Below, piece after piece: positions 10,626 to 55,530 of a stretch of 64,000 nucleotides of DNA (the stretch's first letter is position 1; every line of letters starts with the position of its first letter). The notes beneath the pieces were generated by a model. It was not told where the DNA came from, ran no database searches, and was given only the letters and a program-made list of their open reading frames with translations. Source of the stretch: Nocardioides albertanoniae (GTDB lineage: Bacteria > Actinomycetota > Actinomycetes > Propionibacteriales > Nocardioidaceae); assembly GCF_006716315.1 (NCBI RefSeq), contig NZ_VFOV01000001.1, forward strand, positions 4,480,501 to 4,544,500, given 5' to 3'. Position numbers and translations under genes: made by a program.

Positions 10626-10631
10626 GCCCGA

Positions 10632-14078: not shown

Positions 14079-14298
14079 CCGTCACATGACTGGGCTTGCG
14101 AAGTTCAACACCGGGCTCGCGGAGACCTCTTGTAGGCAGCACCAAATATGGGCGCCCGGACTGTGCAACACGACAACCGCTCCATGCCTTTCCGCAAACT
14201 AGGCCGTGCCGCAGCACTGACGCGATCACGACGTGGCCGGGGTCACAAATTGGGCTAGCCTGGCAAGCCAGCGCTACCCAATCCGGGAGGGATTTCAG

Positions 14299-15540
14299 TT
14301 GTCCATCGATGCTCTTCCCGCCGATTTCGCCACCTGGCTCCCCCGGTTCGTCGCCGACGAATTGCGCCCGGAGATGGTCGAACGGTGGGTCACCCGGACC
14401 AGCAGCGCGATCCGGCGCGAGTTGCCCGAACTCGCCTCGGCGCCGGATTTTTTCGCGCTCCTGGAGGACGCCGTCAGGGAGCACTGGCTTGCTTTCCTAG
14501 CGGCCTTCGGCCAACCCGATTTCCACGCCCACCTGCCTAAAGCGGGCAGTCAATTGGCTCGTGAGGTCGCCGGCCGTCAACTGCCGCTGGAGCTTCTGAT
14601 CAAGATGTACAGAGTGGCTCAGCAGGAGTCATGGCACTACGTCACCGGCGTCGTCAACGCACTGCCGACCGACCAGATCGACCATGCTGCGCTGCTCATT
14701 TTCTTCTGGGGCCGCGCGAGCTCATGGATCGACGGAGCGATCACAGACTCCACCGAGATCTTCCATGCCGAGAGTTCCCGCCGCACCAAGGGCGTGGCGG
14801 CGAGGCAGTACGAAGTCGTGAAGGCCCTCTTGGCTAACGAGCCCACCGACCCCCGGCGCGCCTCGGCCGCTCTGGGCGGCTATCCGATGTCGGTGAGGCA
14901 CACCGCCTTGATCCTGGAGACCGCCGACGCTTATGCCATCGACGGGCTCGAACGTATCGTCCACGAGGTAGCGAGCCTACTCGGCGGGAGTAGTCCTCTT
15001 GTAGTCCACCCCGGCGGCCGTCAACTGTGGGCCTGGATCGGCACGCGTGACCAGCCGGATCTAGGCGGTCTCGAGAACCTCGCCCCCGACCTGGTGAGCA
15101 TCAGCGCAGCACTGTACGCCGGCACACCCGCCCCCGGCCAGGCGGGGTTCGTCAGCAGCCACGATGATGCCCGACGCACCCTTGAGGCCGCCACGAGTGG
15201 CGGTGGATCAGCAGCTGTCATGCGCTACGAGCAGATCGAGCTCCTTGCGCTGCTCGGCTGCAGTCCCGAGGTCGACCGGTTCGTCGATCGTGTGCTGGGG
15301 CCGCTGGGTTCATCCGATGAGCCGACGGCACGGATACGCGAAACGGTTCTAGCCTTCCTGTCACACGGTGGAAGCGTGGAGGACACAGCCGAGGAACTCT
15401 GCGTGCACCGCAACACCATCCGGTATCGGCTTGGCCGGGCGGAGGATCTACTGGACCGGCCGGTAGCCAAGACCGGGGACGAGCTCCGGCTGGCGATCCA
15501 GCACCGGGAGCTGTTTCATTCACCTGACAACCTGGCCTGA
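14299..15540 (+). CDS. PucR/CdaR-family transcriptional regulator
   Basis: Regulator of 413 residues. It has an N-terminal all-helical sensor region (RsbT-like, about residues 20-160), a central GGDEF-like/CdaR domain and a C-terminal PucR helix-turn-helix with the family motif LCVHRNTIRYRLGRAEDLL followed by a short tail. I chose TTG 14299 because GGGAGGG sits 7 bases upstream; an in-frame GTG at 14233 has no such site. It is transcribed divergently from the GMC-mce operon, so it is the likely regulator of that operon. The inducer is unknown. Confidence 0.85.
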   Translation: MSIDALPADFATWLPRFVADELRPEMVERWVTRTSSAIRRELPELASAPDFFALLEDAVREHWLAFLAAFGQPDFHAHLPKAGSQLAREVAGRQLPLELLIKMYRVAQQESWHYVTGVVNALPTDQIDHAALLIFFWGRASSWIDGAITDSTEIFHAESSRRTKGVAARQYEVVKALLANEPTDPRRASAALGGYPMSVRHTALILETADAYAIDGLERIVHEVASLLGGSSPLVVHPGGRQLWAWIGTRDQPDLGGLENLAPDLVSISAALYAGTPAPGQAGFVSSHDDARRTLEAATSGGGSAAVMRYEQIELLALLGCSPEVDRFVDRVLGPLGSSDEPTARIRETVLAFLSHGGSVEDTAEELCVHRNTIRYRLGRAEDLLDRPVAKTGDELRLAIQHRELFHSPDNLA

Positions 15541-15689: not shown

Positions 15690-15790
15690 GATGTACCGGC
15701 CCGAGGTCCGGCTGCAGCTCAAACGCGTGTTCTTCCTCCCCGCGTTCGCCGCCCTGGAGGACCCAACCAGTCGGGCCTACTACGGACCGC
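15690..15790 (+). pseudogene. Possible IS110-family transposase fragment
   Basis: A reading frame without a start carries VRLQLKRVFFLPAFAALEDP followed by TSRAYY. This resembles the C-terminal part of IS110/IS116 transposases, which have an A-F-x-A-L-x-D-P-x-S-R-x-Y-Y box. The frame then stops within the opposite-strand end of the acyltransferase gene. No ends or other transposase domains were found. It is probably a scar of an insertion that formed the junction between the regulator and the P450 cluster. Confidence 0.45.
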
Positions 15791-16574
15791 TCTGTGACGC
15801 ATCTAGGCATCGCAGTTGCTGGCGGGCGAAGTCGTCGCGTGACCGCTTGTGATCGTCACCACCCACGTGCAAGTCGAGCGACGGAGACAGACCGGTGCCG
15901 CGCCCGTCCGACAATTGCTCCAACATTCGGGCAAGCGTGTCGGCCAGCCGACGTGTTCCTGCGCTGACCGCTTCAGGCTCAAGTCCTTGCTCTCTGAGAT
16001 CGGTAAGGTCCAGCGGACGACCGACGTTGATACTGACGGTCGTCCGCTTGAACAGCCTCGGGCGCCGGCTATAGGCGGGCAGGATCTCTTGAGCGCCTCG
16101 TTGCACCACCGGAATCAACGGTGCTCCTGACTCGAGTGCCAGCCGCACCGCTCCTGTCTTGAGATCCATCATGCGGCCGTCGGGGTCTCTCGTAATCGAT
16201 CCTTCGGGATAGATGACAAGAAGCGCACCGCCGCGGAGAGATGTCAAGGCGGCGCCGAATCCGTCCGCGCCACGAGAACGGTCAACCTCCACATGCCCGG
16301 CGGCACGGAACCACCACCCCACGATGCGCTCGCCGAACAGACTGCTCTTGGCAAGGAATGCCGGAGTCCTTCCGTTCGCGAGCACCATCTCGGCAATGAG
16401 CAGCGGGTCAACATGGGAAACGTGGTTCACGGCGAGCACCACGCCGCCGCTGGATGGGATCTGTTCAACGCCATGCCAGTCCCGACGGCGCACCAAGACC
16501 AACGCCGGCTTGCAGACCAAGAACGCGATCCACCACGCCACGCCCCACCCAGGTAGAAACGCAGGTAACCTCAC
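15780..16574 (-). CDS. 1-acyl-sn-glycerol-3-phosphate acyltransferase family protein (PlsC-like)
   Basis: Acyl-CoA-dependent acyltransferase of 264 residues. The H-x4-D catalytic box NHVSHVD lies near residues 48-54 and the substrate-binding YPEGSITRD near 123, both characteristic of PlsC. One hydrophobic segment near the N-terminus (WGVAWWIAFLVCKPALVLV) would tether it to the membrane. The GTG start shares GTGA with the thioesterase stop; longer forms upstream lie inside that gene. Being the last gene of the P450 cluster suggests that oxidised or activated fatty acyl chains end up esterified. The final residues are antisense to an IS110-like fragment, so the extreme C-terminus may not be original. 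Confidence 0.85.
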   Translation of the reverse strand: MRLPAFLPGWGVAWWIAFLVCKPALVLVRRRDWHGVEQIPSSGGVVLAVNHVSHVDPLLIAEMVLANGRTPAFLAKSSLFGERIVGWWFRAAGHVEVDRSRGADGFGAALTSLRGGALLVIYPEGSITRDPDGRMMDLKTGAVRLALESGAPLIPVVQRGAQEILPAYSRRPRLFKRTTVSINVGRPLDLTDLREQGLEPEAVSAGTRRLADTLARMLEQLSDGRGTGLSPSLDLHVGGDDHKRSRDDFARQQLRCLDASQSGP

Positions 16575-17242
16575 TGGACCTCCACCGATGGCTGGCTGTG
16601 CACGTAGGACACCGCTACTGAACTGGGCACGTTGCTCGGACCTCTCGGATCTCTCATCTGCAGGTCGCATTCGCCGGGGCTCATTCCTTGTCCAGCGTTC
16701 GCGGCGAAATGTTCAGCACCGACGACCACGAAGGTGGCCTCGGCGGATCCGACCCCCCGTCCATTGTCGTCCCGCGCCTCGGCGTGGAGCAGCAGCCGTC
16801 GTCCTTCCCGTTGGGCCACGTTGGCGCAGAAGGTGTACGGCTGGCGCAACCGGAACGGTGCTCGGTACTCGACGGTAAGGCTGCGAGTGACGGCGAGCGA
16901 TCCGACCGTGTAGAGCACGAACCCAAACAAGTCGTCGAACGCGAGTGCGACCGCTCCTCCATGCGCGATACCTGGGGCTCCTACATGCGCCTCGTCGAAG
17001 CAGTGGACTGCTTCGACTCCCGACGCGGTGCGGACCGCACGCAGATGCAGGCCGGCCGGATTATCCGGCCCGCATCCGGCGCAATCCGGCGAGTGCGGGG
17101 GCAGCGTCTGGCCGATCCCCACCGGGCGCTGACCGGCGAGGTGCGCCGCCCAGCGAGAGATCACTCCCCCCTCGCGGGATACGTCGCCTTCGCTACCGCC
17201 AACGGGCGTCATCTGGTTGCTGTGCTTCCCAATCGCCGTCAT
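16571..17242 (-). CDS. PaaI-type hotdog-fold thioesterase
   Basis: Predicted acyl-CoA thioesterase of 223 residues. The hotdog domain shows CAGCGPDNPAGLHLRAV, the active-site-bearing VGAPGIAHGGAVALAFDDLF and AVTRSLTVEYRAPFRLRQPY. The N-terminal 50 residues and the last 40 are extra to the fold. The ATG at 17242 is chosen because upstream sequence in the frame overlaps the acyl-CoA ligase. It is closely similar in motif order to the thioesterase at 32.3 kb. It probably releases free acid from acyl-CoA made by the neighbouring ligase, or proofreads it. Confidence 0.85.
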   Translation of the reverse strand: MTAIGKHSNQMTPVGGSEGDVSREGGVISRWAAHLAGQRPVGIGQTLPPHSPDCAGCGPDNPAGLHLRAVRTASGVEAVHCFDEAHVGAPGIAHGGAVALAFDDLFGFVLYTVGSLAVTRSLTVEYRAPFRLRQPYTFCANVAQREGRRLLLHAEARDDNGRGVGSAEATFVVVGAEHFAANAGQGMSPGECDLQMRDPRGPSNVPSSVAVSYVHSQPSVEVQ

Positions 17243-17297
17243 CCGTGTCACTTCTCTATTCGTCGGGCTTCGAGTTGTCCGAGTGAAGCGATACTTC

Positions 17298-18929
17298 TCA
17301 GACTTCGATGACGGCCAGTTCGCCGTCGGCATGCAGTGCGCGTAGGCGCTTCTTGTCGAATTTCCCGACCGACGTCTTCGGTACCTCGGCGACGAAGCTC
17401 CAGCGCTCCGGCAGCCACCACCTGGCAACCTTGTCCTCGAGGAAGTCACGAAGCTGGGCCGGTGTGAGTTCCCTGCCCTCGCGTACGGCGATGACGGCCA
17501 GTGGCCGCTCCTGCCACTTCGCGTCCGGAACCCCCACCACGGAGGCTTCCAGAACGTCGGGGTGACCGGCGAGGTGCAACTCAAGCTCAACCGAAGAGAT
17601 CCACTCCCCTCCGGACTTGATCACGTCCTTGGTGCGGTCGGTCAACGTGACGAAGCTGCGTGAGTTGATGCGCCCGACGTCGCCGGTGCGCAACCACCCG
17701 TCGTGGAACCTCTCTCCGTCGTCCTCCTCCCGGTAGTAGGCGCCGCTGATCCAGGGCCCGCGCACCTGCAACTCCCCCACCGCCGCGCCATCGTTGGGCA
17801 GCACTCGGCCCGCATCGTCGACGATCCTCAATTCCACTCCAGCGACCGGACGCCCCTGGGTGGCACGCAGTTGCCACTGCTCGGACGGGTCGAGCGATGC
17901 GGGCGGACGGGCGACGGCGGCCAGCGGAGAGGTCTCAGTCATCCCCCATGCTTGGACGATCTGCACGCCGTACTTCTCTTGGAATGTCTTCATGAGGTGC
18001 AGGGGCACCGCAGAGCCACCGCAGGCGACAAGACCGAGCGAGGACACATCGTGGCTTGGGTTGGACTCCAGAAAGTTCAAGACGTCGTTCCAGATCGTCG
18101 GGACTGCTCCGGCGATCGTGGGTCGCTCAGCACCGATCAGGCGCACGAGCGGTTCGGCCTGTAGGAAACGCTCGGGCATGAGTAGGTCGGCACCGGCCAT
18201 GAAGGCGGAATAGACCAGGCCCCAAGCGTTGGCGTGGAACATGGGCACGATCGCGAGGATGCGGTCACCGGCGCCGATACCGAGGCCGTCTGCGAGACAG
18301 GCGGCCATGGAGTGCAGGTAGGTCGACCGGTGACTGTAGGCGACTCCTTTGGGATTGCCGGTGGTCCCGGACGTGTAGCACATGGCCGCCGCCGTGCCTT
18401 CATCGAGCTCGGGCCAGTCGAAGGCCTCGGGCTGACCCGAGATGAAATCCTCGTATCTCACGACCGTGACGTCCTTGCTGCGTAGCGGAGTGAGATCGAC
18501 GTCGCCCGTCACCACGACGGTGTGCACGCTGGTGATCTGCGGTAACACCGGAGCCAGGAGGGGTACGAGACTGCCATCGGCGATGATCACTCGATCTTCG
18601 GCGTGGTTGCCGATGTAGGTGATCTGCTCCGCGGCGAGGCGCAAGTTCAGGGTGTGGAGCACCGCGCCCATCGAGGGCACCGCCAAGTACGCCTCCACGT
18701 GTTCTTGGTTGTTCCACATGAAGGTGGCGACCCGATCATCGCCAGTGATTCCGCAGCCTCGCAACGCGTGAGCCAACTGCGCAGCCCTACGGCCGACCTC
18801 GGCGAAGGTGCCGACCTTTACGGTTCCATCGGGTTGCAGCGTCCGCACCGTTGCAGACCCGTGCACGCCTGCGCCGTGACGCATGATTGCTGTGGTCGTC
18901 AACGGGACGTTCATCATCGTGCTCTGCAT
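17298..18929 (-). CDS. Fatty acyl-CoA synthetase (FadD-type AMP-binding enzyme)
   Basis: ATP-dependent ligase that activates carboxylic acids to acyl-CoA; 543 residues. The P-loop motif YTSGTTGNPKGVAYSH is near residue 186, the adenylation motif WGMTETSPLA lies in the middle, and DGWLRTGDVG and DRTKDVIKSGGEWIS mark the domain hinge. The catalytic Lys lies in KTSVGKFDKKRLR near the C-terminus. This combination matches medium/long-chain acyl-CoA ligases. In this cluster it would activate the fatty acid produced by the P450-alcohol-aldehyde oxidation steps. Confidence 0.9.
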   Translation of the reverse strand: MQSTMMNVPLTTTAIMRHGAGVHGSATVRTLQPDGTVKVGTFAEVGRRAAQLAHALRGCGITGDDRVATFMWNNQEHVEAYLAVPSMGAVLHTLNLRLAAEQITYIGNHAEDRVIIADGSLVPLLAPVLPQITSVHTVVVTGDVDLTPLRSKDVTVVRYEDFISGQPEAFDWPELDEGTAAAMCYTSGTTGNPKGVAYSHRSTYLHSMAACLADGLGIGAGDRILAIVPMFHANAWGLVYSAFMAGADLLMPERFLQAEPLVRLIGAERPTIAGAVPTIWNDVLNFLESNPSHDVSSLGLVACGGSAVPLHLMKTFQEKYGVQIVQAWGMTETSPLAAVARPPASLDPSEQWQLRATQGRPVAGVELRIVDDAGRVLPNDGAAVGELQVRGPWISGAYYREEDDGERFHDGWLRTGDVGRINSRSFVTLTDRTKDVIKSGGEWISSVELELHLAGHPDVLEASVVGVPDAKWQERPLAVIAVREGRELTPAQLRDFLEDKVARWWLPERWSFVAEVPKTSVGKFDKKRLRALHADGELAVIEV

Positions 18930-19007
18930 AAGGTTCCTTCACTCGTGTGTGGATCCGCACGGACAGTTGTTCCGAGATAGCCGACCTTCGAACGTCAATG
19001 GCGATGA

Positions 19008-20075
19008 TCAGCCATCTGCCGCCGCCAAGGAGGTTGCGGCAGACTCCAGGGACTCGACGAGACGCAACTCCAACTCCGGTAGCCGGCTGGCTATCAGGAC
19101 CACGTCGTCAATCCGCGAACGTGGGTGGGTGTCGCGCTTGACCGCAGCGCGGGCGGCTTCTGTCCAGCCCTGTGCGCAACGGGCAGCTTCGGTCGCAGCC
19201 TCAGCGGTCGCCTGGTCGCCGGTCAGACGTGCGACTTCTGCGCAGCCATCTGCGAGCAGTCGCCGAAAGAGCCCGCCGCCGGTGCCTGCCTTCTCGATGA
19301 AGGCACCCAGGCTGAACAACAAGAGTCCGAGTTCGTCGTCGGGAAGTTCCGCCCAGGTCGCGATGTCGTCAGCGAACAGAGCAACCGCCTTCAGGCCTTC
19401 GGCACCGACCGCGGCTGTGGCGGGGCCGGCAATGCTGTGTTGTGACGGATCGCGCATGTTGCCGGCACACTGGATGAACGCGCCCGCGGCGGCTTCCTCG
19501 ATGGCGGGCAGGGACGGCGGCCAGGTGATGCGGTACGTGCAGTGACGCGTGGGTTGTGGGAATGCCGTTGAGGACCGTGCCCGGGCCAAGGCGTCCAAAG
19601 GCACCTTCTGCACCTCGGCGCGGTCGTTGTCCACGACGTAGGCGAGTTGTTCGTCTTCGTCGTAGCCGATGACGACGATGTCGTGACGGCTCATCTGCAG
19701 CTGGACACGGAGGTACGGAAGTTCGGCGATGTCTCCCCAAATCAGGCTGGGTCGACCGGCGTCGAGTTCGTTACGGACCCACGACCATCCCTCGGCGGGA
19801 TCGTCGGTGGTAAGGACCTGCACGACACCGCCCAGTCGCGTCGGTAGATCGATTTCGAAGTCAGCACCTCGCCCCACCAGGTACAGCGGGGGGAAGAGTT
19901 CGCTCGACCGGAGGAACGAGAGCCCTAGAGCGCCGCCGAGCGTGAAGACCAGGCCCTCATTGGGCGGTCCATCCCATCCCAGACCGTGCCAGTGCAGCAG
20001 ATCGCGCATCGCACCGGAGCCGCAGTGTCCCCCCAGTCGATGGGGGTAGTCCTGGATGAAGGCATTGACGGGCAT
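19008..20075 (-). CDS. BtrH N-terminal domain protein with DUF4872-like C-terminus
   Basis: A protein of 355 residues. The N-terminus carries GGHCGSGAMRDLL with Cys18 as probable nucleophile. MSRHDIVVIGYDEDEQ (His131) and a downstream Asp (VVDNDR) complete a papain-like layout. This matches the BtrH N-terminal family, whose founder transfers an acyl group from a carrier protein onto an aminoglycoside amine. The helical second half corresponds to the DUF4872 region that usually accompanies it. Such a protein is not a standard part of alkane or fatty acid oxidation clusters. It could acylate or deacylate an amine-containing acceptor, or process a peptide. It has 52- and 78-base gaps to its neighbours, all on the same strand. 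Confidence 0.75.
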   Translation of the reverse strand: MPVNAFIQDYPHRLGGHCGSGAMRDLLHWHGLGWDGPPNEGLVFTLGGALGLSFLRSSELFPPLYLVGRGADFEIDLPTRLGGVVQVLTTDDPAEGWSWVRNELDAGRPSLIWGDIAELPYLRVQLQMSRHDIVVIGYDEDEQLAYVVDNDRAEVQKVPLDALARARSSTAFPQPTRHCTYRITWPPSLPAIEEAAAGAFIQCAGNMRDPSQHSIAGPATAAVGAEGLKAVALFADDIATWAELPDDELGLLLFSLGAFIEKAGTGGGLFRRLLADGCAEVARLTGDQATAEAATEAARCAQGWTEAARAAVKRDTHPRSRIDDVVLIASRLPELELRLVESLESAATSLAAADG

Positions 20076-20127
20076 GTGGCGTCCTTCTCTTTGTGCTCTT
20101 CGTGCCGAATGGTTCTGGAGTTGGGGG

Positions 20128-20961
20128 TCAGTTGTTCCGAATGCGGTCGAGGTACGTCTGGCGGGCGACCATGTCGACGTCGTCGAGGAAGACCGAGTCC
20201 GTGCCCAGGACAGAGCCGAGCGCGGACGCCACCCGTCCGGGCACGAACTTCATCGCTGCGACCATGCCGCCGGCGAGGCGAGTGACCCGTACGAAGGGAC
20301 GGGGATGCTCGATCAGCTCGGCTGTCGCGCGAGCAATCTCTTCGGGTTCGGCGTTGCGCAGCCCCTTGGCTCCGGCCGTGCCGGCGACGAGCTCGGTGTT
20401 GGTGAATGTCGGTCGCACGGTGGACAGTTGGATCCCGGACTTGCGGTACTCCTGCCGTGCTGCCTCGGTGAATCCGATGACTGCGAACTTGGTGGCGCAG
20501 TAGGTAGCCAGGCCAGGCACGGGCAGTTCCCCGGCCAGCGATGCGGTGTTGATGATGTGTCCGGCCCGCCGCGGCAGCATCCGCTGGAGGGCGAGCTTGG
20601 TCCCGAAGATCACTCCGAGGAGGTTGATCTCCACCTGTCGCCGGGTGACGGCGTCGTCCTCCTCGTGAGCGTGTCCGGTGGGCATGATGCCCGCGTTGTT
20701 GACCAGCACATCGAGGGGGCCAAGCTGTTCCTCGACCATGTCGAGGAACGCCCGGAACGAGTCGGGGTGGGTGACGTCGAGATGGCCCACAACAGAGATA
20801 CCGAGCTCGTCCGCCGCTTTCTTGATACGGGCCTCGTCGATGTCGCCGATGGCAACGCGGTGGCCGCGTTCGGTCAGTTCCTTCGCCGTCTGGTAGCCGA
20901 TGCCACGGGCTCCTCCAGTGATCGCGATCGTCTTGGCGGGGAAGGAAGTGGCGTGCGTCAT
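20128..20961 (-). CDS. Short-chain dehydrogenase/reductase
   Basis: NAD(P)-dependent oxidoreductase of 277 residues. The cofactor motif TGGARGIG is at about 15-22, NNAG at 88-91, catalytic Ser141 in NTASLAG and Tyr154/Lys158 in YCATK. Asp40 after the second strand (AIGDID) suggests NAD(H) preference. The start ATG shares ATGA with the aldehyde dehydrogenase stop and has AAGGAGC upstream. In context it probably oxidises the fatty alcohol formed by the P450 to the aldehyde, or handles a secondary alcohol. The longer upstream frame is inside the neighbouring gene. Confidence 0.87.
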   Translation of the reverse strand: MTHATSFPAKTIAITGGARGIGYQTAKELTERGHRVAIGDIDEARIKKAADELGISVVGHLDVTHPDSFRAFLDMVEEQLGPLDVLVNNAGIMPTGHAHEEDDAVTRRQVEINLLGVIFGTKLALQRMLPRRAGHIINTASLAGELPVPGLATYCATKFAVIGFTEAARQEYRKSGIQLSTVRPTFTNTELVAGTAGAKGLRNAEPEEIARATAELIEHPRPFVRVTRLAGGMVAAMKFVPGRVASALGSVLGTDSVFLDDVDMVARQTYLDRIRNN

Positions 20962-22490
20962 CTGCGGTGCTCCTTGTTCTGGCCGAGGCGTTGACTCAGG
21001 CCGCGTCCGGCTGCTGCGCGCAGCATCTTCGCGGCGATGGCCGTACGCCAGGCGGAGTACGGGTACCACGTGAGCTCTCTTGCCCGGACTGGAAGTCGTG
21101 GCTCGGTGACCGCGCGGACGCGGCAGTACTTGTGCAGCCCGTCGGCTCCTCCGAGCCGGGCGCCCATCCCGGAGGCCTTCCAGCCACTGTGAGGCAACGT
21201 CATCGCGAAGAGGTTGCTGAAGACATCGTTGATGTTGACCGCGCCGACCTCCAGGCGCCGTGCAACACGGCGGGCGCGAGCACGATCACGAGTCCACACG
21301 GTCGCCGACAATCCGTACGTCGAGTCGTTGGCCAGTCGGATGGCCTCTTCTTCGTCGGCGACGCACATCACCGGGATCGTGGGTCCGAAGGTCTCCTCGG
21401 TCATGCAGGACATCGTGTGATCCACGTCGACAAGGACCGTTGGCGTGTAGTAGTTCCCGGCCGCACCCCGCTTGCCGCCGGCCACTACCTTCGCTCCCGC
21501 GGCCACCGCCTCGCTGACGTGGCGATCCGCGATGTCAACTTGTCTCGCGGTGACCATCGCACCAACATCGTTGCCGGCATCCGCCCCCTGGGTCAGGGAC
21601 TGCACGCGCTGTGTCAGGCGGGCCACGAATTCCTCGTAGACCGCAGCAACGACATACACGCGTTCGACGGAGATGCAGACTTGCCCTGCGTTGAAAAGGC
21701 CACCCCAGGCGACGCCCTCGACCGCTCGAGCGAGATCGGCGTCCTCCAGCACGATCGCCGGATCCTTGCCGCCCAGCTCCAGACTCACCGGTTTCAACTG
21801 CTCAGCACAGCGGAGGGCGACCTGGCGCCCTGTCGCTGTCGAGCCCGTGAACTGGACGAAGTCGGCGGCATCCACCACTGCGGCACCAGTGTCGCCGGCT
21901 CCTGTGACATGTGCGAGAACGGGTGGCGCGCCGATCTCGCGCCAGCCGTCGATGACCCGCGCGCAGGTCAGCGGTGTCTCTTCTGAGGGCTTCGCCAGTA
22001 CCGCGCAACCGGCAGCCAGTGCGGGGGCTGCGTCCATGAGGAACAGGGTGATCGGGAAGTTCCACGGGGTGATCAGACCGACGAGTGGGTAGGGCTGGTA
22101 GGTCTTGGACAGTCGTTTCGGCAGGCTGAGTAGACCCGCGGTCTTGACCCGTTCGTCGGCGAGGAACTCCTCGGCATGGTCGGCGTAGTAGGTGATGAAC
22201 TCGCACGAGGCGGTCGTCTCTACGAGCGCGTCCGGACGAACCTTGCCTGTCTCGGCCTGCAGCAGGTCGGTGAGCTCATCGGAGTGCGTGAGGATCCAGT
22301 CGCGCCAGAGGCGCAGCCACTTGGAGCGCTGCCGCGGACCAGCCTCGGCCCATGCACGTTGGGCCAGCCGGAGCTGCGTGGCGCGGCGGTTCACAGCGTC
22401 ACGGTCGTCAACGGACACGGTTCCCACCAGCTGACCGTCGGACGGGTTGCGCACCTCGAGTGCGCTATTTGAGGTCGTTGTGGTGGTCAT
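20958..22490 (-). CDS. Aldehyde dehydrogenase (NAD-dependent)
   Basis: ALDH-superfamily enzyme of 510 residues. It has the motif PWNFPITLFLMDAAPALAAG, catalytic Glu near 238 in LELGGKDP, nucleophilic Cys near 272 in NAGQVCIS, and EETFGPTIPV. It converts an aldehyde to the carboxylic acid, which the adjacent ligase can activate. The C-terminal 40 residues are basic and longer than in typical ALDHs, with hydrophobic positions (WYPYSAWRTAIAAKMLRAA) that could associate with membrane, as in fatty aldehyde dehydrogenases. It is coupled to SDR and to the transglutaminase-like gene by ATGA overlaps. Confidence 0.9.
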   Translation of the reverse strand: MTTTTTSNSALEVRNPSDGQLVGTVSVDDRDAVNRRATQLRLAQRAWAEAGPRQRSKWLRLWRDWILTHSDELTDLLQAETGKVRPDALVETTASCEFITYYADHAEEFLADERVKTAGLLSLPKRLSKTYQPYPLVGLITPWNFPITLFLMDAAPALAAGCAVLAKPSEETPLTCARVIDGWREIGAPPVLAHVTGAGDTGAAVVDAADFVQFTGSTATGRQVALRCAEQLKPVSLELGGKDPAIVLEDADLARAVEGVAWGGLFNAGQVCISVERVYVVAAVYEEFVARLTQRVQSLTQGADAGNDVGAMVTARQVDIADRHVSEAVAAGAKVVAGGKRGAAGNYYTPTVLVDVDHTMSCMTEETFGPTIPVMCVADEEEAIRLANDSTYGLSATVWTRDRARARRVARRLEVGAVNINDVFSNLFAMTLPHSGWKASGMGARLGGADGLHKYCRVRAVTEPRLPVRARELTWYPYSAWRTAIAAKMLRAAAGRGLSQRLGQNKEHRR

Positions 22491-23212
22491 TGATCCTCCT
22501 GAGGCGAAGTGGACCGGCGTGAGGATCCACCGGGTTTGACCTGGCTGGCGGGCTTTGCGGTGAAGGCGTCGTCGATCGCCTGCGGCGAGGCCTCGACCAT
22601 CGATCCATAGGTGTTCCGAAGCTCGGTCAGGATCGCGGCCAGGGGAAGGTCGTCATAGACGCCGCGCTCGCGGACGTACTCCATGTGCTGGGTTCCGTCC
22701 CCAGTGAAAGCGTGCATGAGCGCGTCGTGCTCGCCGTCGAATTCCACAGGTGGAACGCCGAAACGAGCGCATAGTTCGACGTTGAATGCCGGGGTGGCCT
22801 TGAGCCATCTCCCGTCGATGTGGAGACTGCTGTATCCGTGATAGACGAACAGGTCGGTGCCGCCCATGAGCTTTCGCAGTGATTCGGTCTGCAGATGGTT
22901 GCGCACATCAGCGAACCCCAACCGCGCTGGAATTCCCGCTGCACGGCACACTGCGGTCAAGAGGACCGCTTTCGGGACGCAATAGGCACGGCCCGCTTGG
23001 AGGACGAAACTCGCGCGGTAGTTGGCGGGGTCGGCCGAAACGGTGTAGGGGTCGTACCAGACTTGGTCCCGGACGGCAGCGAAGAGGCGCCTCGCCTTTT
23101 CCCTGTCGCCGGACGCGTCACCAACGGTGGCCTCGGTGAAGGCGCGGATGTCTTCGTGCTCGATGTCGAGGAACTCAGTCGCCTCAAGGAACGACGCCGG
23201 ACTGCAGCTCAT
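22487..23212 (-). CDS. Transglutaminase-like cysteine protein
   Basis: A protein of 241 residues with a transglutaminase-like core. Cys78 lies in GRAYCVPKAVLLTAVCRAAG, followed by IPARLGFADVRNH and then His125 in YHGYSSLHIDGRWLKATPAFN. The spacing matches the family box H-x-W-N-E-V-x-x-D-G-x-W. The Asp usually found in the VDPT segment is Thr here (KATPAF), so the third catalytic residue differs. No signal peptide is seen. The start is ATG 23212 with GGAG 9 bases upstream; a longer frame exists but shows no conserved features. Its stop shares ATGA with the ALDH start. Possible roles are peptidase, amidase or acyl transfer; I cannot assign a substrate. Confidence 0.75.
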   Translation of the reverse strand: MSCSPASFLEATEFLDIEHEDIRAFTEATVGDASGDREKARRLFAAVRDQVWYDPYTVSADPANYRASFVLQAGRAYCVPKAVLLTAVCRAAGIPARLGFADVRNHLQTESLRKLMGGTDLFVYHGYSSLHIDGRWLKATPAFNVELCARFGVPPVEFDGEHDALMHAFTGDGTQHMEYVRERGVYDDLPLAAILTELRNTYGSMVEASPQAIDDAFTAKPASQVKPGGSSRRSTSPQEDQ

Positions 23213-23580
23213 CCTCGCTCCAAGGTCATCGGATACTCGTCCGCGAGAACCGGTAGCGAGGCGTTGTCCCATCGCTTGTTCTTGGCCCGGGTGAGACTGG
23301 TCCGAATCGGGAGCAGTCCATGACGTGGCCAAGAGACGGGAGCCTGACAGTTTCCTGAACCGACTTGAGACCGGAGCCTGCCCGAACTGGTGCGAGGTCG
23401 CGGACTGGCAACTGGTCTCGGACCGCGCGCAGGGCTCTGTCTGCCCGAACGCGATAGGCAGGTCGTCATTGAATGTCCTCTCGACGATAGGTCCACTCTT
23501 CGTTGCCATGGGATTCGCGGTTGGCCCGGAGCCCTCCGCTCCAGCACGCCCGGCTCGCGACGAGCCCGGATCGCACGGCA
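23213..23580. other. Gap of 368 bases without a convincing gene
   Basis: Between the transglutaminase-like gene and the ferredoxin reductase. Open frames here are Arg/Ser/Pro-rich and show no family motif or ribosome site. It is the only long gap in an otherwise tightly packed cluster. It may hold an internal promoter or remnants of a deleted gene. No terminator hairpin was obvious. Confidence 0.4.
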
Positions 23581-24795
23581 TTACGCACCCGCGTCACTCA
23601 CAGCCGAAGTCAGCTCGGCTCGCCCAACGCCCCGAGACGCCTGCGTCAGAAGCCGCTTGCTGACGACGAAGTCACGGGGACGGTTGACACAATCCGCAGC
23701 GATTAGCTCGCCTTGACGAAGGTAGAAGCAGGTGAAGTCACGGTCCAGTTTCGGGTCACCGCTGAGGACGACTTCGTCGAACCCGGTGTTGAGCCCAGCG
23801 ATCTGGAGCTTGACGTCGTACTGATCCGACCAGAACCATGGAAGAGCAGCGATCTCCTTGGACTTTCCAGAGATCGTCGCTGCGGCCACTTTGGCCTGCT
23901 CCCCCGCGCTTGGAACGCATTCCAGGCGGACCCGACCGCCGTAGGAGGCCATGTATCGACTCGTGCAGTCACCGGCCGCAACGATGTTCCGGTCACTTGT
24001 CCGAGCACGGTCGTCAATCACAATACCGTTGTCGACCTCCAAGCCGGCTGATGCGGCGAGCTCGGTGTTCGGCTCGACACCGATGCCAACGATCACGAGG
24101 TCTGCAGGGACGGCCTCGCCATTGGACAGGAGCACTTCGCGGACCTTGGTTTCACCGGTGAAGGCCTCGACGAGGGCTCCGGTTCGAATGCTCACACCCT
24201 CCTCTTGGTGGACCCGTTGGAAGAACGCTGAGACCTCGGGAGCGGTGACTCTTTCGAGAACACGCTCGGTCGCCTCGAGCACGGTGACGTCCAGCCCCAA
24301 GGCGCGCAGCGAGGCTGCCACCTCGAGCCCTATGTACCCCCCGCCAACGATCACGGCCACGCTTCCTGGTTGGGCGGCTGCTCGGATCAGGTCCACGTCC
24401 ATGGCGGTGCGCAGGTAGCAAACACCGGAAAGATGGGCACCTGGGACGAGCAACCGTCGCGGACGCGCGCCGGTGCACAACGCGAGATGGTCGTAGGCCA
24501 GCGACTGGCCGCTGCTCAGCGTCAGGTGGCCAGCAGAGCGGTCGATCGCCTCGACCCTCGCATCGAGAAGGCTAATCTTCCGCTTGTCGTAGAACTCCGC
24601 ACTGCGAATTTCCAGCTCTTCGAAGGCGCTCTTCCCAGCCAGATAGGCCTTCGACAGTGGTGGGCGTTGATAGGGCACTGGCGACTCATCGCCCACCAGG
24701 ACAATCTCGCCGTCCCAGCCTTCCTGGCGCAGGCTGGCCGCGAGTTGCGCGCCGGCATGGCTTGCTCCGACAATCACCGTTCTCAGTGCGGTCAT
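23581..24795 (-). CDS. FAD-dependent ferredoxin reductase of the P450 system
   Basis: NAD(P)H-ferredoxin/rubredoxin reductase of 404 residues. It has an N-terminal FAD motif VIVGASHAGAQLAASLR, the signature PYQRPPLSKAYL, an NAD-binding motif VIVGGGYIGLEVAASLRALG and a second FAD motif NIVAAGDCTSRY. The C-terminal reductase domain contains PWFWSDQYDVKLQIAG. These are the hallmarks of CamA/putidaredoxin-reductase-like enzymes. The start shares ATGA with the P450 stop, so it is the dedicated electron donor partner for the ferredoxin and P450 upstream. Confidence 0.92.
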   Translation of the reverse strand: MTALRTVIVGASHAGAQLAASLRQEGWDGEIVLVGDESPVPYQRPPLSKAYLAGKSAFEELEIRSAEFYDKRKISLLDARVEAIDRSAGHLTLSSGQSLAYDHLALCTGARPRRLLVPGAHLSGVCYLRTAMDVDLIRAAAQPGSVAVIVGGGYIGLEVAASLRALGLDVTVLEATERVLERVTAPEVSAFFQRVHQEEGVSIRTGALVEAFTGETKVREVLLSNGEAVPADLVIVGIGVEPNTELAASAGLEVDNGIVIDDRARTSDRNIVAAGDCTSRYMASYGGRVRLECVPSAGEQAKVAAATISGKSKEIAALPWFWSDQYDVKLQIAGLNTGFDEVVLSGDPKLDRDFTCFYLRQGELIAADCVNRPRDFVVSKRLLTQASRGVGRAELTSAVSDAGA

Positions 24796-26183
24796 GCGCT
24801 GCTTTTTGGGGTCAGTCGGACCATCAATTTGCTGATACCCCGCACGAAGTTGGACTGCACGTATTCCGGCTCACCCACGACTTCGATGTTCTCGAAGCGC
24901 GGGAGCAGCTCCTCCCAGAGAATGCGCAGTTGCAACTCGGCCAGCCGGTTGCCCATGCAACGGTGGACACCGAATCCGAAGGCGATATGGTTGCGTGCGT
25001 TTGGCCGGTCGATGATCAGCTCATCTGGCCGATCGAACACCGTCTCGTCGCGATTACCAGACGCGTACCACATGACGACTTTGTCGCCCTTGCGGATGAA
25101 CTGGCCGTTCAGGATGGTATCGGTCTTCGCGACCCTGCGCATGTAGGCGAGCGGCGTCTGCCAGCGGATGATCTCCGACACCATGTTGGGGATCAGGTCG
25201 GGGTTGGCCTTTAGCTTCTCGAACTGGTCCGGGAACTGGTTGAGCGCTAGAACCCCGCCACTCATCGAGTTCCGGGTGGTGTCGTTGCCGCCGACGATCA
25301 ACAGCACCAGGTTCCCGAGGAACTCCATGGGGCGGTCGATCAGATCCTTGGTGTTGTCGTCACTCTGCAGCATGGTGATCAGATCGAAGCCGGGTTCCTC
25401 CCCGGCAGCAGTCCTGGCCGCCTTGTCATGCCAGAGCGCGCTGAGACCTCGCGCCATGTCGCGCATTCCATGGAAGACTTCGTCGTTGTCCGAGGGGCCA
25501 CCGTTGGCCTGCTCCATCGACGACGCAAGGTCTGACCAGTAGGTGAGCTTTTGACGCTGCTCGTACGGGAAGTCCAGCAAGGTGGCGAGCATGCGGCCCG
25601 TCAGCTCGATTGATACTCGCTGCACCCAGTTGAAGGGCTCACCCACAGGAAGATCGTCCAGCACCTCGCGGACACGTGTCCTGATGAGGCCCTCCATCTC
25701 GCGCAGGTTCTTCGGCGCGACAACGCCTTGGACCGCCTGTCGCTGCAGGTCGTGACGCGGAGGATCCATCGCGATGAACATCTCGATGTCGAGGAATCGA
25801 GGTGGAACACCGATGACGATCAAAGGTTCGGCCGAGAAGACTTCATGGTTCTTGTCAACGGCGATGATGTCGGCGTGACGAGTGACCGACCAGAACGGGC
25901 CGAACGGGCTGTTGGGCTGATAATGGATCGGGGCCTCGTTGCGCAGGCGCTCGAAGTAGGATTGCCATCGACCCTGCCGATACAGGAAGGGATTGCTGAC
26001 GTCGATGTCCGCGAGCTCCACCTCGTCGACCGGCGGGATAGGACGTTCTACGAACATCCTGTCGCCGTTCGCACCTCTCACCCATCTCATGGTCTTGTCG
26101 TAGAGATGCGCGCCCTGAATCTGGCGCTCCATCGGGATGGAGGATTGAACTTTGGCCGTGATTGCCTCAGGAATCTTCATCAT
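24792..26183 (-). CDS. Cytochrome P450, CYP153-like alkane/fatty acid terminal hydroxylase
   Basis: Heme monooxygenase of 463 residues. The heme-ligand loop FGFGVHRCMGNRLAELQLR lies near residue 407, the oxygen-activation helix has GGNDTTRNS, and the ExxR motif is EIIRW. The segments EMFIAMDPPRHDLQRQAV and IELTGRMLATLLDFPYEQR closely resemble CYP153 enzymes. CYP153s hydroxylate the terminal carbon of medium-chain alkanes, alkenes or fatty acids. The gene lies directly between its ferredoxin and ferredoxin reductase, the usual CYP153 arrangement. No clear ribosome site precedes ATG 26183 (a second ATG follows immediately), but the ferredoxin stop is only 18 bases upstream. Confidence 0.9.
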   Translation of the reverse strand: MMKIPEAITAKVQSSIPMERQIQGAHLYDKTMRWVRGANGDRMFVERPIPPVDEVELADIDVSNPFLYRQGRWQSYFERLRNEAPIHYQPNSPFGPFWSVTRHADIIAVDKNHEVFSAEPLIVIGVPPRFLDIEMFIAMDPPRHDLQRQAVQGVVAPKNLREMEGLIRTRVREVLDDLPVGEPFNWVQRVSIELTGRMLATLLDFPYEQRQKLTYWSDLASSMEQANGGPSDNDEVFHGMRDMARGLSALWHDKAARTAAGEEPGFDLITMLQSDDNTKDLIDRPMEFLGNLVLLIVGGNDTTRNSMSGGVLALNQFPDQFEKLKANPDLIPNMVSEIIRWQTPLAYMRRVAKTDTILNGQFIRKGDKVVMWYASGNRDETVFDRPDELIIDRPNARNHIAFGFGVHRCMGNRLAELQLRILWEELLPRFENIEVVGEPEYVQSNFVRGISKLMVRLTPKSSA

Positions 26184-26201
26184 TTCAACCCGTTCTCGTC
26201 G

Positions 26202-26522
26202 TCACATCTGAAATTCGGGAAGCCGGACGCTCAGCCCGTCCCACACGTCGGAGACCACCATCTGGCAAGACAGCCGGGAGGTCGGTTCACGCTCAGGGTT
26301 CATCGCGAGCATCTCCTCCTCATCGGCGCCGGGCGGCCCGACACATTCGGACCACTGCGGATCAACGATGACGTGACAGGTCCCGCACGCAGCTTCTCCA
26401 CCGCAGTCACCGTCGATGCCAGGCACCGCGTTGTTCGTCGCGACCTGCATCAACGACTGCCCTTCCTCAACGGGCACCGCGTGCGTCTTCCCGTCGTGTG
26501 ACACAAACCTAACCACTGTCAT
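26202..26522 (-). CDS. [2Fe-2S] ferredoxin
   Basis: Electron carrier of 106 residues. Cluster ligands are Cys40, Cys46, Cys49 and Cys86, with spacing C-x5-C-x2-C-x36-C, typical of adrenodoxin/putidaredoxin-type ferredoxins that serve class I P450s. ATG 26522 has AGGAGAG upstream; the longer frame upstream overlaps the divergent regulator and is not supported. It is the first gene of the P450 cluster, so the main promoter should lie between 26523 and 26642. Confidence 0.93.
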   Translation of the reverse strand: MTVVRFVSHDGKTHAVPVEEGQSLMQVATNNAVPGIDGDCGGEAACGTCHVIVDPQWSECVGPPGADEEEMLAMNPEREPTSRLSCQMVVSDVWDGLSVRLPEFQM

Positions 26523-26576: not shown

Positions 26577-26642
26577 GCGGATGCGCCCTGTGGCTATGGT
26601 CACACGAGTCAGAAAGTTGTGATTTCGGCTCAAGGAGTGTCT

Positions 26643-27656
26643 TTGAACGGCAGCGACGCGGGCGTGCCCTACACGGCTTTCGCACAGCTGCTCGAGAGCC
26701 AAACTCTCGACGCAGAGGCAGCCGCACGGTTCCGCGCCATCATGGTTCGCGAGGGAGCCGACGAGACGACCCTGCTGCAACTCGGCGGCCAGGCACCGGC
26801 TCGATGGTTCCGGGAGGTGTACCCCAACCTGGACGCCGATCAAGCGACCCACCTCGGCCATGCGTTCGCAGATCAGGCCCAGCTGACCTCATTCGGCCCA
26901 TTGAGTCTTCCCTTGATCAGTGCGGGCTCGGTCGCTGAGGTCATGGAACTGCTCACGTATCTTCCCTTGATTACGACGGCCGTCAGTACGCGGTTCCATC
27001 CGAATGACGACGGCCTTGCGGTCGGGCTCACAGGTCAGACGGGCGATCCGGACCTGGACTGCCTGGTCGTCACCTACTGTGGTTCCGCGCTCCTGCGGTT
27101 GATCCGAATGCTCGCTGGCGACGTGTCAACCGTCAGGCTGCACACCAGTTGGCCGGCGCCCGCCTCCACGACCCAGCATGAGGACGCGCTGGGAAGACAC
27201 CTGGTTTTCAACGCGCCCATGACGTTCCTGTATGTGCCCACGGAGGTCCTGAACGAGGTCTGCCGGTTCTCCGACCCCGTTGCATACCGACACGCGATCG
27301 CCGATCTGTCGAAATCCCTTGAGCACCGGATCGGACCGGCGTCATACGCGACCAAGGTAAGACTGTCGATAGAAGAGGGCCCCGGACTAAAAACCTGTCA
27401 GTCGGTCGCAAACGAACTGTCAATCTCGACCAGCACTCTCAAGCGACGTCTCCTCAACGAGGGCACCACGTTCCGAGAGATACTCGAATCGTCGTTGCTG
27501 GAGCGGGCCTCGCTAAAGCTGCTCGACCGATCCTTGTCGGTCAGCGAGATAGCTGTTGAACTCGGTTTCAGCGACCTGACCAACTTCTCACATGCCTTCA
27601 AGCGATGGACTGGCCAGTCTCCAAGCCACTTCCGACAAGAATGCCTGAGGTGGTGA
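26643..27656 (+). CDS. AraC-family transcriptional regulator
   Basis: Regulator of 337 residues. It has an N-terminal arabinose-binding-like sensor region (AraC_binding_2/OruR type, about residues 15-200). The C-terminal double helix-turn-helix carries LSISTSTLKRRLLNEG and the signature VSEIAVELGFSDLTNFSHAF followed by RWTGQSPSHFRQ. TTG 26643 is chosen because AAGGAG lies 5 bases upstream; GTG 26619 in frame is an alternative. It is divergent from the ferredoxin-P450 cluster and probably activates it in response to an alkane or fatty acid, as AraC-type AlkR/AlkS-like regulators do elsewhere. The inducer is inference. Confidence 0.88.
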   Translation: MNGSDAGVPYTAFAQLLESQTLDAEAAARFRAIMVREGADETTLLQLGGQAPARWFREVYPNLDADQATHLGHAFADQAQLTSFGPLSLPLISAGSVAEVMELLTYLPLITTAVSTRFHPNDDGLAVGLTGQTGDPDLDCLVVTYCGSALLRLIRMLAGDVSTVRLHTSWPAPASTTQHEDALGRHLVFNAPMTFLYVPTEVLNEVCRFSDPVAYRHAIADLSKSLEHRIGPASYATKVRLSIEEGPGLKTCQSVANELSISTSTLKRRLLNEGTTFREILESSLLERASLKLLDRSLSVSEIAVELGFSDLTNFSHAFKRWTGQSPSHFRQECLRW

Positions 27657-27913: not shown

Positions 27914-28546
27914 TCAGGCCTGAGCGTCAGTCGCGCTAGCAGGGCAATCAGTGGTGCGTGGTTCCTTTTGGCCGCCAAGCCCTTGCATCAGAACGCCGAG
28001 AACTCGTTTCGCAACCTGTTCTGCAGAGGGGCGGCTGTCTTCAACTGCGTGATACAGACCGGCGACTGTGATGGCCCCAAAGATCGCCAGGGATGCCTCT
28101 TCTGGGTGGGGCTGCACGTGTAGCGATCCGTCGGCGGCGCCTTCGGCAAGGAGTTGTTCGATGGGACGGCGGAATGCTTCTTGGAGGGCGTGAGCGAGCG
28201 CAGGAAGTCTGGTGGCTCGGCCGAGGTCACCAACGAGCGCCCGACATGCGGCGGGCTGGTCGAGCATCACGGCGATCTGGGCTTGGACCGCAGCTTCGAG
28301 GCGGACGCGGGCGCTTCCGGTGGCCCCAACAGCTGCCGCTACCTCGCCAGCAATTGCCTCGAGCATGTCGGTGAGGAGGAAGGCGAGGATCTCATCCTTA
28401 CCGGTGAAGTAGTAATAGAGGGTTGCGCGAGGGATGCCGGAGGCAGCCGCGATTTCGTCCATCTTGGCCTCGGCGACTCCGCGCTCGGCGATCAGTTCCG
28501 CGGCTCCGTAGAGCTTGCTTGCGATGGAGGCAGGCAGTTGCCGCAT
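27914..28546 (-). CDS. TetR/AcrR-family repressor
   Basis: Regulator of 210 residues with an N-terminal helix-turn-helix (MDEIAAASGIPRATLYYYFTGKDEILAFLL) and a helical ligand-binding C-terminus. ATG 28546 is preferred over GTG 28552 because GAAAGG lies 9 bases before the ATG. It is divergent from the MmpL exporter gene. A perfect palindrome in the shared intergenic region is its probable operator, so it likely represses the exporter and itself until a hydrophobic ligand binds. Confidence 0.88.
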   Translation of the reverse strand: MRQLPASIASKLYGAAELIAERGVAEAKMDEIAAASGIPRATLYYYFTGKDEILAFLLTDMLEAIAGEVAAAVGATGSARVRLEAAVQAQIAVMLDQPAACRALVGDLGRATRLPALAHALQEAFRRPIEQLLAEGAADGSLHVQPHPEEASLAIFGAITVAGLYHAVEDSRPSAEQVAKRVLGVLMQGLGGQKEPRTTDCPASATDAQA

Positions 28547-28614
28547 CTCCACACACCTTTCCGGACGAGTGACACTGCGTATTCGGAGGGTATCGACAGC
28601 AGCCTCAGCCTATG

Positions 28615-28631
28615 TTGTACTGCGAGTACAA
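28615..28631. promoter_or_regulatory. Palindromic TetR-type operator
   Basis: TTGTACT-GCG-AGTACAA, 7-base arms with perfect symmetry and a 3-base spacer. It lies between the divergent TetR gene and the MmpL gene, about 30 bases before the exporter start. Size and position fit a TetR operator. It also argues that translation of the exporter starts after it, at GTG 28660, not at the upstream TTG 28612. Confidence 0.6.
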
Positions 28632-28659
28632 ACTCAAGATACAAGTCATGGAGGCATCC

Positions 28660-48812: not shown

Positions 48813-49124
48813 AAGGACTACCCCAAGCTTCGCCAATCGCGTCGCCGCAGCGGCTCCAAAGGTGATGCCACCGCAACCTCACCACTCGATGGTCACTCCC
48901 GTTGTTCCCCGAGGCGCCGGACTGTCCGTTACGTTGCCCACGAACACACGCTCGACAGCGGACGCTGTCGCGCGGCTCCTTACCCGGTTGCAAAGGCCGA
49001 ACCCGGTGGGAGTGCCGCAAGTCTTGGCCTATCCCGGTAGATCCCCGTCTGCCGGGGCAGACCTCTTTCATTCCCGCTCCTCTGGGCCACTCGCGGGCCT
49101 CCGTCGTCCCTGGGGTGTGTGACC
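48813..49124. other. Gap of about 310 bases at the mobile element border
   Basis: Between the cydA break and the relaxase. No gene is supported except the 18-codon readthrough of the cydA frame. It contains the hairpin at 49047-49062. A mobilisation origin is expected in this position for a MobF relaxase gene. Confidence 0.5.
49047..49062. other. Hairpin, candidate part of an oriT
   Basis: GTCTGCC-GG-GGCAGAC, a perfect 7-base-pair inverted repeat 63 bases upstream of the relaxase start. An overlapping alternative stem pairs CCCCG (49043-49047) with CGGGG (49053-49057). MobF relaxases nick next to such repeats just upstream of their own gene. The nick site cannot be identified by eye. Confidence 0.35.
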
Positions 49125-52619: not shown

Positions 52620-52863
52620 CCCACCCCGTCACGTTCGGACCCTATCTCGCTCCAAGAGAGCCTCGTCTTCTGGGAAGTCTGCCGATTCCCCACAGGTCCC
52701 TCGCCACGGTGAAGGTCTTGACGACGCTGTCTCGGCAGCAGCATCCGCTGCGTGCGGTGCAGAAGTCCTGCGTTCGCGGCCTCGCAGTCGGATCGCGCCC
52801 GGAGCCGGTCTACCCGCGGTTCTGCTCGATGGTCCCCGAATCATCGCCCTAGGCTCAGGGCAC

Positions 52864-53810: not shown

Positions 53811-53880
53811 GAATCGAACCGCTGCCAGGCGCCAAACCTCATGCAGACTCCACAGGATCGTGTCATCACGACCTGCCGGG

Positions 53881-54735: not shown

Positions 54736-54801
54736 TCCTGGTTGTCACCAGGTAGGTGCACCGCACAAAGACGCCTCTTGAGCGTGCCAGATCCGAAGAG
54801 T

Positions 54802-54807: not shown

Positions 54808-54812
54808 TTGGT

Positions 54813-55487: not shown

Positions 55488-55530
55488 CGGGCCCGGCCAT
55501 CACCACCGGCGTCGACACGCCCGAACAGCA

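What the first reader, a model, noticed from the sequence alone, without database searches (positions are those of the whole stretch)
15780..26522. CYP153 alkane/fatty-acid oxidation cluster with two unexpected cysteine enzymes
The leftward unit contains ferredoxin, CYP153-like P450, ferredoxin reductase, transglutaminase-like protein, ALDH, SDR, BtrH-like protein, FadD ligase, PaaI thioesterase and PlsC acyltransferase. Terminal oxidation to an acyl-CoA needs only the P450 trio, dehydrogenases and ligase. The BtrH-like and transglutaminase-like proteins both act on thioester or amide bonds in known relatives, and PlsC esterifies acyl groups. Together they suggest a product in which an oxidised acyl chain is joined to, or removed from, an amine, peptide or glycerol acceptor, rather than simple alkane degradation. 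I know of no described pathway with this set.
Basis: partly seen in the sequence, partly recalled or inferred. Interest (0 to 1): 0.72.

Follow-up and report, generated by a model that had tools for sequence, protein, structure and literature searches.

The report
Conserved acyl-transfer enzymes in alkane operon
A mobile set of genes for oxidising alkanes in soil bacteria carries two cysteine enzymes, one of them built like antibiotic-making acyl-transferases, that have stayed with it in several bacterial families although what they make or break is not known.

The parts
26619..27656 (+). AraC-type regulator, divergent from the operon (Arabinose_bd + HTH_18)
   Evidence: found at 45% identity or more in 50 of 80 related loci; in Dietzia the AraC regulator CypR activates a CYP153 promoter (PMC12472514, passages)
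26202..26522 (-). [2Fe-2S] ferredoxin, 106 aa
   Evidence: Fer2 43 bits; 56 of 80 loci
24792..26183 (-). CYP153-family P450, 463 aa
   Evidence: 709 bits to 5fyf (recalled as CYP153A of Marinobacter), 477 bits to 3rwl, named CYP153A7
23581..24795 (-). ferredoxin reductase, 404 aa
   Evidence: Pyr_redox_2 and Reductase_C
23216..23450 (-). remnant of a second P450 (P450b, CYP120/CYP51-like), internally deleted; P450b is whole in 22 of the 80 related loci
   Evidence: tblastn 51-65% over 49-66 codons to P450b of L013-L016, L018, L019; a further piece of about 58 bases matches the 3' end of P450b; count
22487..23212 (-). transglutaminase-like protein (TG), 241 aa; Cys78 and His125 invariant, Thr140 at the usual Asp position
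   Evidence: model pLDDT 84.9, fold matches
20958..22490 (-). aldehyde dehydrogenase, 510 aa
   Evidence: Aldedh 450 bits
20128..20961 (-). SDR dehydrogenase, 277 aa
   Evidence: adh_short 174 bits; NF005878 subfamily over its cut-off
19008..20075 (-). BtrH-like protein (BtrH_N + DUF4872), 355 aa; Cys18, His131 and Asp149 invariant
   Evidence: model pLDDT 90.1; full-length match to AziU3, CtaG, CcbD
17298..18929 (-). FadD-type acyl-CoA ligase, 543 aa
   Evidence: AMP-binding 274 bits; NF004837 665 bits, cut-off 476
16571..17245 (-). PaaI/hotdog thioesterase (start uncertain)
   Evidence: 4HBT 32 bits, cut-off 20.6; a PaaI match somewhere in 61 of 80 loci
15780..16670 (-). PlsC-type acyltransferase (start uncertain)
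   Evidence: Acyltransferase 91 bits; below the 1-acylglycerol-3-phosphate acyltransferase cut-off (65 of 103 bits)

Best explanation
This is a mobile CYP153 operon with an AraC-type regulator, for oxidising alkanes or long acyl chains, with a built-in pair of cysteine acyl-transfer enzymes. Inferred route: the P450 with its ferredoxin and reductase hydroxylates the chain end; the SDR (or the GMC oxidoreductase next door) and the ALDH take it to the acid; FadD makes acyl-CoA. The BtrH-like enzyme takes the acyl group from the phosphopantetheine thioester onto Cys18 (with His131 and Asp149) and hands it to a nucleophile in two steps, as CcbD does; no carrier protein was found nearby, so CoA is the likely donor. 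The TG-like enzyme (Cys78, His125) carries out a second acyl transfer or hydrolysis on a CoA-derived product. PaaI releases, and PlsC may deposit, acyl groups. Shown: gene content, association and order, purifying selection, conserved candidate catalytic residues, predicted folds. Inferred: substrates, CoA as donor, order of steps, acceptor, control by AraC.
For: Genus, 59 genomes: BtrH in 15, CYP153 at 82% or more in 13, both in 13; TG in 12, all 12 with both. Class, 296 genomes: BtrH subfamily (52% or more) in 9, CYP153 in 10, both in 8; TG in 11, 9 of them with BtrH, in G166 as a 91-residue piece. All 9 CYP153 places at 83% or more there have BtrH within 16 kb. Control: 22 further genomes with only distant BtrH relatives (25-33%) have no CYP153 match. 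Of 80 BtrH loci, 57 hold CYP153 within about 10 kb and 12 more within about 25 kb on the same contig. Order kept in several genera. Pairwise divergences track each other: P450-BtrH r 0.86, TG-BtrH 0.91, P450-FdR 0.89. pN/pS 0.19-0.34 for TG, 0.21-0.29 for BtrH, six comparisons each. A BtrH-like gene at 25% identity lies 3.8 kb after the CYP153 in the Acinetobacter plasmid locus read (lists). Structure. CcbD works by a Cys acyl-enzyme and accepts fatty acyl groups (PMC12945683, passages). One carrier-protein match in the genome, far away.
Against: No substrate, product or expression data for these two genes. CtaG and CcbD use carrier proteins, not CoA. The catalytic assignment rests on conservation, fold and similar spacing (CtaG C11/H128/D144 from entry titles, CcbD C19/H131), not on a residue-level structural alignment; sequence profiles found no close solved relative. 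Thr140 in TG may mean altered activity. TG is missing from 18 of 80 BtrH loci, some of them cut short, and from the Acinetobacter locus read. In G205 TG lies on another contig than BtrH and CYP153. BtrH and TG occur without CYP153 in G214 and in the genome of L042; BtrH alone without CYP153 in the genomes of L041 and L073 and in G323 and G347 (partial). The surveys ignore kinship.
Confidence: 0.55

Rival explanations
1. Both cysteine enzymes are catabolic hydrolases: thioesterases, or ester or amide hydrolases, that clear awkward oxidised acyl-CoAs and free CoA during alkane breakdown. No conjugate is made.
For: TG homologues (46-51% identity) on three Alphaproteobacteria plasmids sit among CaiB CoA-transferases, MaoC dehydratases and thiolase, with acyl-CoA dehydrogenases beside them in two. 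Mycobacterial TG loci (L007, L092, L093, L110) hold BVMO-type oxidoreductases, FadD and acyl-CoA dehydrogenase. Mce-type lipid import genes lie near several clusters, the window's included.
Against: A PaaI-type thioesterase match is already in 61 of 80 loci. CtaG and CcbD, the solved full-length relatives with a described activity, are transferases.
Confidence: 0.27
2. The BtrH-like enzyme joins the CYP153 product (1-alkanol) to acyl-CoA, giving alkyl esters (a second route to wax esters) for storage or detoxification.
For: FadD and an alkanol-forming type of P450 are in the same unit; a BtrH-like gene is also listed in a dialkylresorcinol pigment cluster (PMC3949708, one table passage).
Against: The genome already has two WS/DGAT matches elsewhere; CtaG and CcbD make amides; TG is left unexplained.
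Confidence: 0.08
3. The two genes are passengers: they lie in a mobile alkane cluster by descent and have no role in the same pathway.
For: The cluster lies in a probable integrative element here and on plasmids elsewhere, so linkage can persist by descent.
Against: Purifying selection; linkage kept where the operon is rearranged (L029, L033, L048, L087); linkage in Acinetobacter at 25% identity.
Confidence: 0.04
4. The TG-like protein primarily serves the second P450 (P450b) rather than CYP153, for example on a ketone/BVMO route; in the window it is left over after loss of P450b.
For: TG directly follows P450b in 23 of 27 P450b loci by ORF call, and TG is also in L075 by tblastn; this includes G214, which has no CYP153 match. 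The window has only a P450b remnant. Most of these loci were chosen by BtrH, so the count is biased.
Against: Many TG genes lie in CYP153/BtrH loci where no P450b was found (for example L005, L049, L050, L052, L055, L078-L081), and the window's TG is under selection.
Confidence: 0.06

Closest known systems
CYP153 alkane hydroxylase operons (AraC, ferredoxin, P450, ferredoxin reductase; e.g. Dietzia, Amycolicicoccus, Marinobacter)
   Same: Same kind of regulator, electron-transfer trio and order
   Different: Adds TG, ALDH, SDR, BtrH-like, FadD, PaaI and PlsC genes; the Marinobacter pHP-187 locus shows neither cysteine gene in the annotation within 9 kb
BtrH / CtaG / CcbD / AziU3 family
   Different: 7-17% identity to the solved ones, no carrier protein found nearby, in an alkane operon and not an antibiotic cluster
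Closthioamide biosynthesis (CtaG plus transglutaminase CtaJ)
   Same: A BtrH-fold and a transglutaminase-type enzyme in one pathway, on thioester-bound chains (proposed)
   Different: Nonribosomal peptide pathway with carrier proteins; homology of CtaJ to this TG was not tested
Transglutaminase-core enzymes, arylamine N-acetyltransferases and GdmF amide synthase
   Different: Thr140 where, as recalled, these have Asp
DarH (NCBIfam NF053550, BtrH-related acyltransferase)
   Same: 50.7 bits over residues 10-332
   Different: Far below the family cut-off of 300

Membership tests
CYP153 alkane hydroxylase operon | CYP153-family P450 | tested here: met
   477 bits to 3rwl, named CYP153A7, and 709 bits over 448 residues to 5fyf; the family rule of over 40% identity is recalled
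CYP153 alkane hydroxylase operon | Adjacent ferredoxin and ferredoxin reductase | tested here: met
   26202-26522 and 23581-24795
CYP153 alkane hydroxylase operon | Alkane oxidation activity | not testable with these tools
   -
BtrH/CtaG/CcbD transferase superfamily | BtrH_N domain and full-length fold | tested here: met
BtrH/CtaG/CcbD transferase superfamily | Catalytic Cys-His-Asp/Glu | tested here: met
   C18, H131 and D149 invariant in 53 sequences; matched to CtaG and CcbD by spacing only
BtrH/CtaG/CcbD transferase superfamily | Carrier protein as acyl donor | tested here: inconclusive
   One PF00550 match in the genome, at contig position 1759067; a divergent carrier could be missed
BtrH/CtaG/CcbD transferase superfamily | Amide-forming activity | not testable with these tools
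   -
DarH equivalog | Score over the curated cut-off | tested here: not met
   50.7 of 300 bits
Transglutaminase-like superfamily | Transglut_core over cut-off, and fold | tested here: met
   57.5 bits, cut-off 23; fold
Transglutaminase-like superfamily | Cys-His-Asp triad (place of the Asp recalled, judged by spacing) | tested here: not met
   Cys78 and His125 invariant, Thr140 in place of Asp; so not filed as an active transglutaminase, only as a member of the fold superfamily

The most novel reading that the evidence does not exclude
Alkane-oxidising actinobacteria, and with the BtrH-like gene alone Acinetobacter, carry a CoA-fed version of antibiotic-type amide synthesis: the BtrH-like and TG-like enzymes couple a CYP153-oxidised acyl chain straight from CoA to an amine (or diamine) acceptor, giving an acyl-amide surfactant, signal or detoxified product that is part of growth on hydrocarbons.
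Probability: 0.22. Interest if true: 0.78.

Novelty: new variant of a known kind. Interest (0 to 1): 0.57.

Why it matters
CYP153 operons are a known route of alkane oxidation and a tool in biocatalysis, yet a recurring part of one clade of them was not described in what I could search: CYP153 with transglutaminase (0 papers); transglutaminase-like with acyl-CoA, alkane and Rhodococcus (0 papers); BtrH with alkane (9 papers hold both words; none was opened, and the one abstract that shows the word uses it as a compound abbreviation). Subscription journals are mostly not held. If the pair makes a conjugate, it is a new product of hydrocarbon metabolism; if it hydrolyses, it is a missing catabolic step. 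Either way a gene-deletion test in a laboratory Rhodococcus is possible.

Tried and rejected
Rejected: the 364-aa transglutaminase ORF as the gene (homologues start at 23212). DarH membership (50.7 of 300 bits). Passenger genes as the whole story (selection, Acinetobacter). The wax-ester role is kept as a weak rival only. The idea that Nocardioides loci L078-L083, L085 and L089-L091 lack CYP153 was wrong: it lies about 12-25 kb away on the same contig, beyond the fetched flank.

Led nowhere: sequence profiles against solved structures for both proteins (no convincing match); direct repeats of 40 bases or more in the window (none); PMC4711121 on the Dietzia CYP153 regulator is not held. The Dietzia CN-3 transcriptome (PMC12472514, 12 passages) reports CYP153 and its ferredoxin and reductase genes induced; its main text does not use the words BtrH or transglutaminase; supplements not read. 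The main texts of PMC3743902 and PMC9861168 do not use the word transglutaminase (passages seen). A fold family missing from the VIA lists is not thereby excluded.

Limits: the 80 loci are the best 80 of 321 relatives and lean to close ones; 36 of 80 are shorter than 20.9 kb. Of 23 loci without CYP153 in the stretch, 22 were tested at genome level (L040 left out). Presence thresholds were set by hand. Fisher values and the 200 permutations ignore kinship. Locus maps rest on a simple ORF caller and miss genes. Plasmid gene tables are incomplete, and the lists showed 60 of 96 and 60 of 94 records.
Full report
Observation. The leftward unit is present as described. ORF listing, Pfam and NCBIfam support ferredoxin, P450, reductase, transglutaminase-like (TG), ALDH, SDR, BtrH-like, FadD, PaaI-type and PlsC-type genes between 26522 and 15780, with 4-base overlaps at P450/FdR, TG/ALDH and ALDH/SDR. 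The P450 is of the CYP153 family: 709 bits to 5fyf and 477 to 3rwl, named CYP153A7. A divergent AraC-type regulator (26619-27656) completes the unit.

Is the pair accidental? No. Two surveys of whole genomes were made. In 296 genomes of the class, a BtrH-like gene of this subfamily (52% identity or more) is in 9, CYP153 in 10 and TG in 11; 8 hold both BtrH and CYP153, and 9 hold both BtrH and TG (in G166 TG is a 91-residue piece; in G205 it is on another contig). All 9 CYP153 places at 83% or more have a BtrH gene within 16 kb; the 2 at 67-71% (G045, G118) have none. G214 has BtrH and TG without CYP153; G216 and G222 have TG without this BtrH. As a control, 22 further genomes with only distant BtrH relatives (25-33%) have no CYP153 match. 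In 59 genomes of the same genus, BtrH is in 15 (in G347 only in part), CYP153 in 15 and TG in 12. The 13 genomes with a CYP153 at 82% or more all have BtrH on the same contig within about 25 kb; the 2 whose only CYP153 is at 70-71% (G045, G365) have none; G323 and G347 have BtrH without CYP153. All 12 TG genomes have both others. Fisher p is 3e-13 (class) and 2.6e-11 (genus), ignoring kinship; G000 and G354 are near-identical in all three genes.

Order and neighbours. From GTDB species genomes 321 relatives of the BtrH-like protein were found and the best 80 fetched. Within the fetched stretches, at thresholds set by hand, CYP153 is present in 57 of 80, TG in 62, FdR in 60, a PaaI-type match in 61, SDR in 46, ALDH in 33, PlsC in 27 and FadD in 24. 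Of the 23 without CYP153, 22 were searched as whole genomes: 19 hold it, 12 of them on the contig of the BtrH gene within about 25 kb (in L076 at only 65% identity), and 3 do not. The order AraC / Fdx-CYP153-FdR-(P450b)-TG-ALDH-SDR-BtrH-FadD recurs in Nocardioides, Nocardia, Rhodococcus (pRZP3 too), Hoyosella, Gordonia malaquae and Tsukamurella sputi; in Aeromicrobium the P450 trio lies inverted at the other end; shorter forms (TG-BtrH, or BtrH alone) occur in other Gordonia and Tsukamurella and in Williamsia and Dietzia. On plasmids, BtrH relatives are in 96 records and CYP153 in 94, each with 45 Acinetobacter records; among the rows shown, 21 Acinetobacter accessions stand in both lists. In the one Acinetobacter locus read the BtrH-like protein is 25% identical and lies 3.8 kb after the P450; no TG was found there. 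The Marinobacter pHP-187 CYP153 locus shows neither gene in its annotation within 9 kb.

Co-inheritance and selection. Pairwise protein divergences of the unit's genes track each other: P450-BtrH r 0.858 (62 loci), TG-BtrH 0.906 (67), BtrH-AraC 0.933 (54), P450-FdR 0.889 (63); none of 200 permutations reached these values. pN/pS is 0.19-0.34 for TG and 0.21-0.29 for BtrH against six relatives; FdR 0.24-0.25 and CYP153 0.07-0.15 against five. Synonymous sites are near saturation in the farther pairs.

What they do. The unit should yield an acyl-CoA (FadD) from an oxidised chain. No carrier protein was found near it; the single PF00550 match in the genome is at 1759067. So a CoA thioester is the likely donor. 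The acceptor is unknown. Against a purely biosynthetic reading, TG homologues at 46-51% sit in CoA-ester breakdown operons on three Alphaproteobacteria plasmids, mycobacterial TG loci hold BVMO-type oxidoreductases, FadD and acyl-CoA dehydrogenase, and Mce-type genes lie near several clusters. I hold the acyl-transfer reading at 0.55 and hydrolysis at 0.27.

A lost P450. In 22 of the 80 loci, and in pRZP3, a second P450 (about 486 aa; best solved relative 2ve3, CYP120, 176 bits) is whole; in 27 loci with it over the whole set, TG directly follows it in 23 by ORF call. In the window only a piece of its 5' part and a short 3' piece remain (23216-23450), which explains the odd upstream extension of the TG ORF.

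Mobility. The window lies in a contig of 4,970,507 bases. An integrase (55531-56799), a TrwC-type relaxase (49119-52619) and tRNA-Ala (57259-57334) lie to the right. Exact copies of the tRNA 3' end stand 1.9 kb (35 bases) and 9.6 kb (46 bases) left of the window. The cluster thus lies inside a probable integrative element of about 59 or 67 kb, in line with its plasmid life elsewhere.

Verdict. A real and recurring variant of a known operon type, with a function that can be tested.

Noticed in passing
window 23216-23450 (-): Remnant of a second P450 (CYP120/CYP51-like) that is whole in 22 of the 80 related loci, in most of them directly before TG.
   Followed up: yes
window 49119-57334 and contig positions 4470863-4478650: Integrase, TrwC relaxase and tRNA-Ala with exact 35- and 46-base copies of the tRNA 3' end to the left: a probable 59-67 kb integrative element that carries the CYP153 cluster. 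The second copy may mark a nested element.
   Followed up: partly
window 3764-11435 (-): Mce-type lipid import genes (an MlaE permease and six MlaD/Mce proteins) next to the cluster.
   Followed up: partly
window 12288-14078 (-) and 14233-15540 (+): GMC oxidoreductase with a divergent PucR-type regulator, also beside the cluster in L017, L049 and L050; a candidate fatty-alcohol oxidase.
   Followed up: partly
window 28612-31689 (+), 33056-35257 (-), 27914-28552 (-): Two MMPL transporters and a TetR regulator beside the cluster; in L082 and L083 MMPL and TetR genes lie close to BtrH-TG.
   Followed up: no
L107, L108, L109: TG homologues (46-51%) on Alphaproteobacteria plasmids inside a conserved gene set with MaoC, CaiB transferases, thiolase and OB-fold protein: an unidentified degradation pathway.
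   Followed up: partly
L007, L092, L093, L110: Mycobacterial clusters of BVMO-type oxidoreductases, P450b, TG, FadD and acyl-CoA dehydrogenase, with BtrH in L007 and L092 and no CYP153 in the stretch read; on the plasmid of L110 a CYP153 lies about 19 kb from TG.
   Followed up: partly
L011 (haloarchaeal plasmid): A distant BtrH-like gene about 2 kb from a P450, with beta-oxidation-type genes nearby.
   Followed up: no
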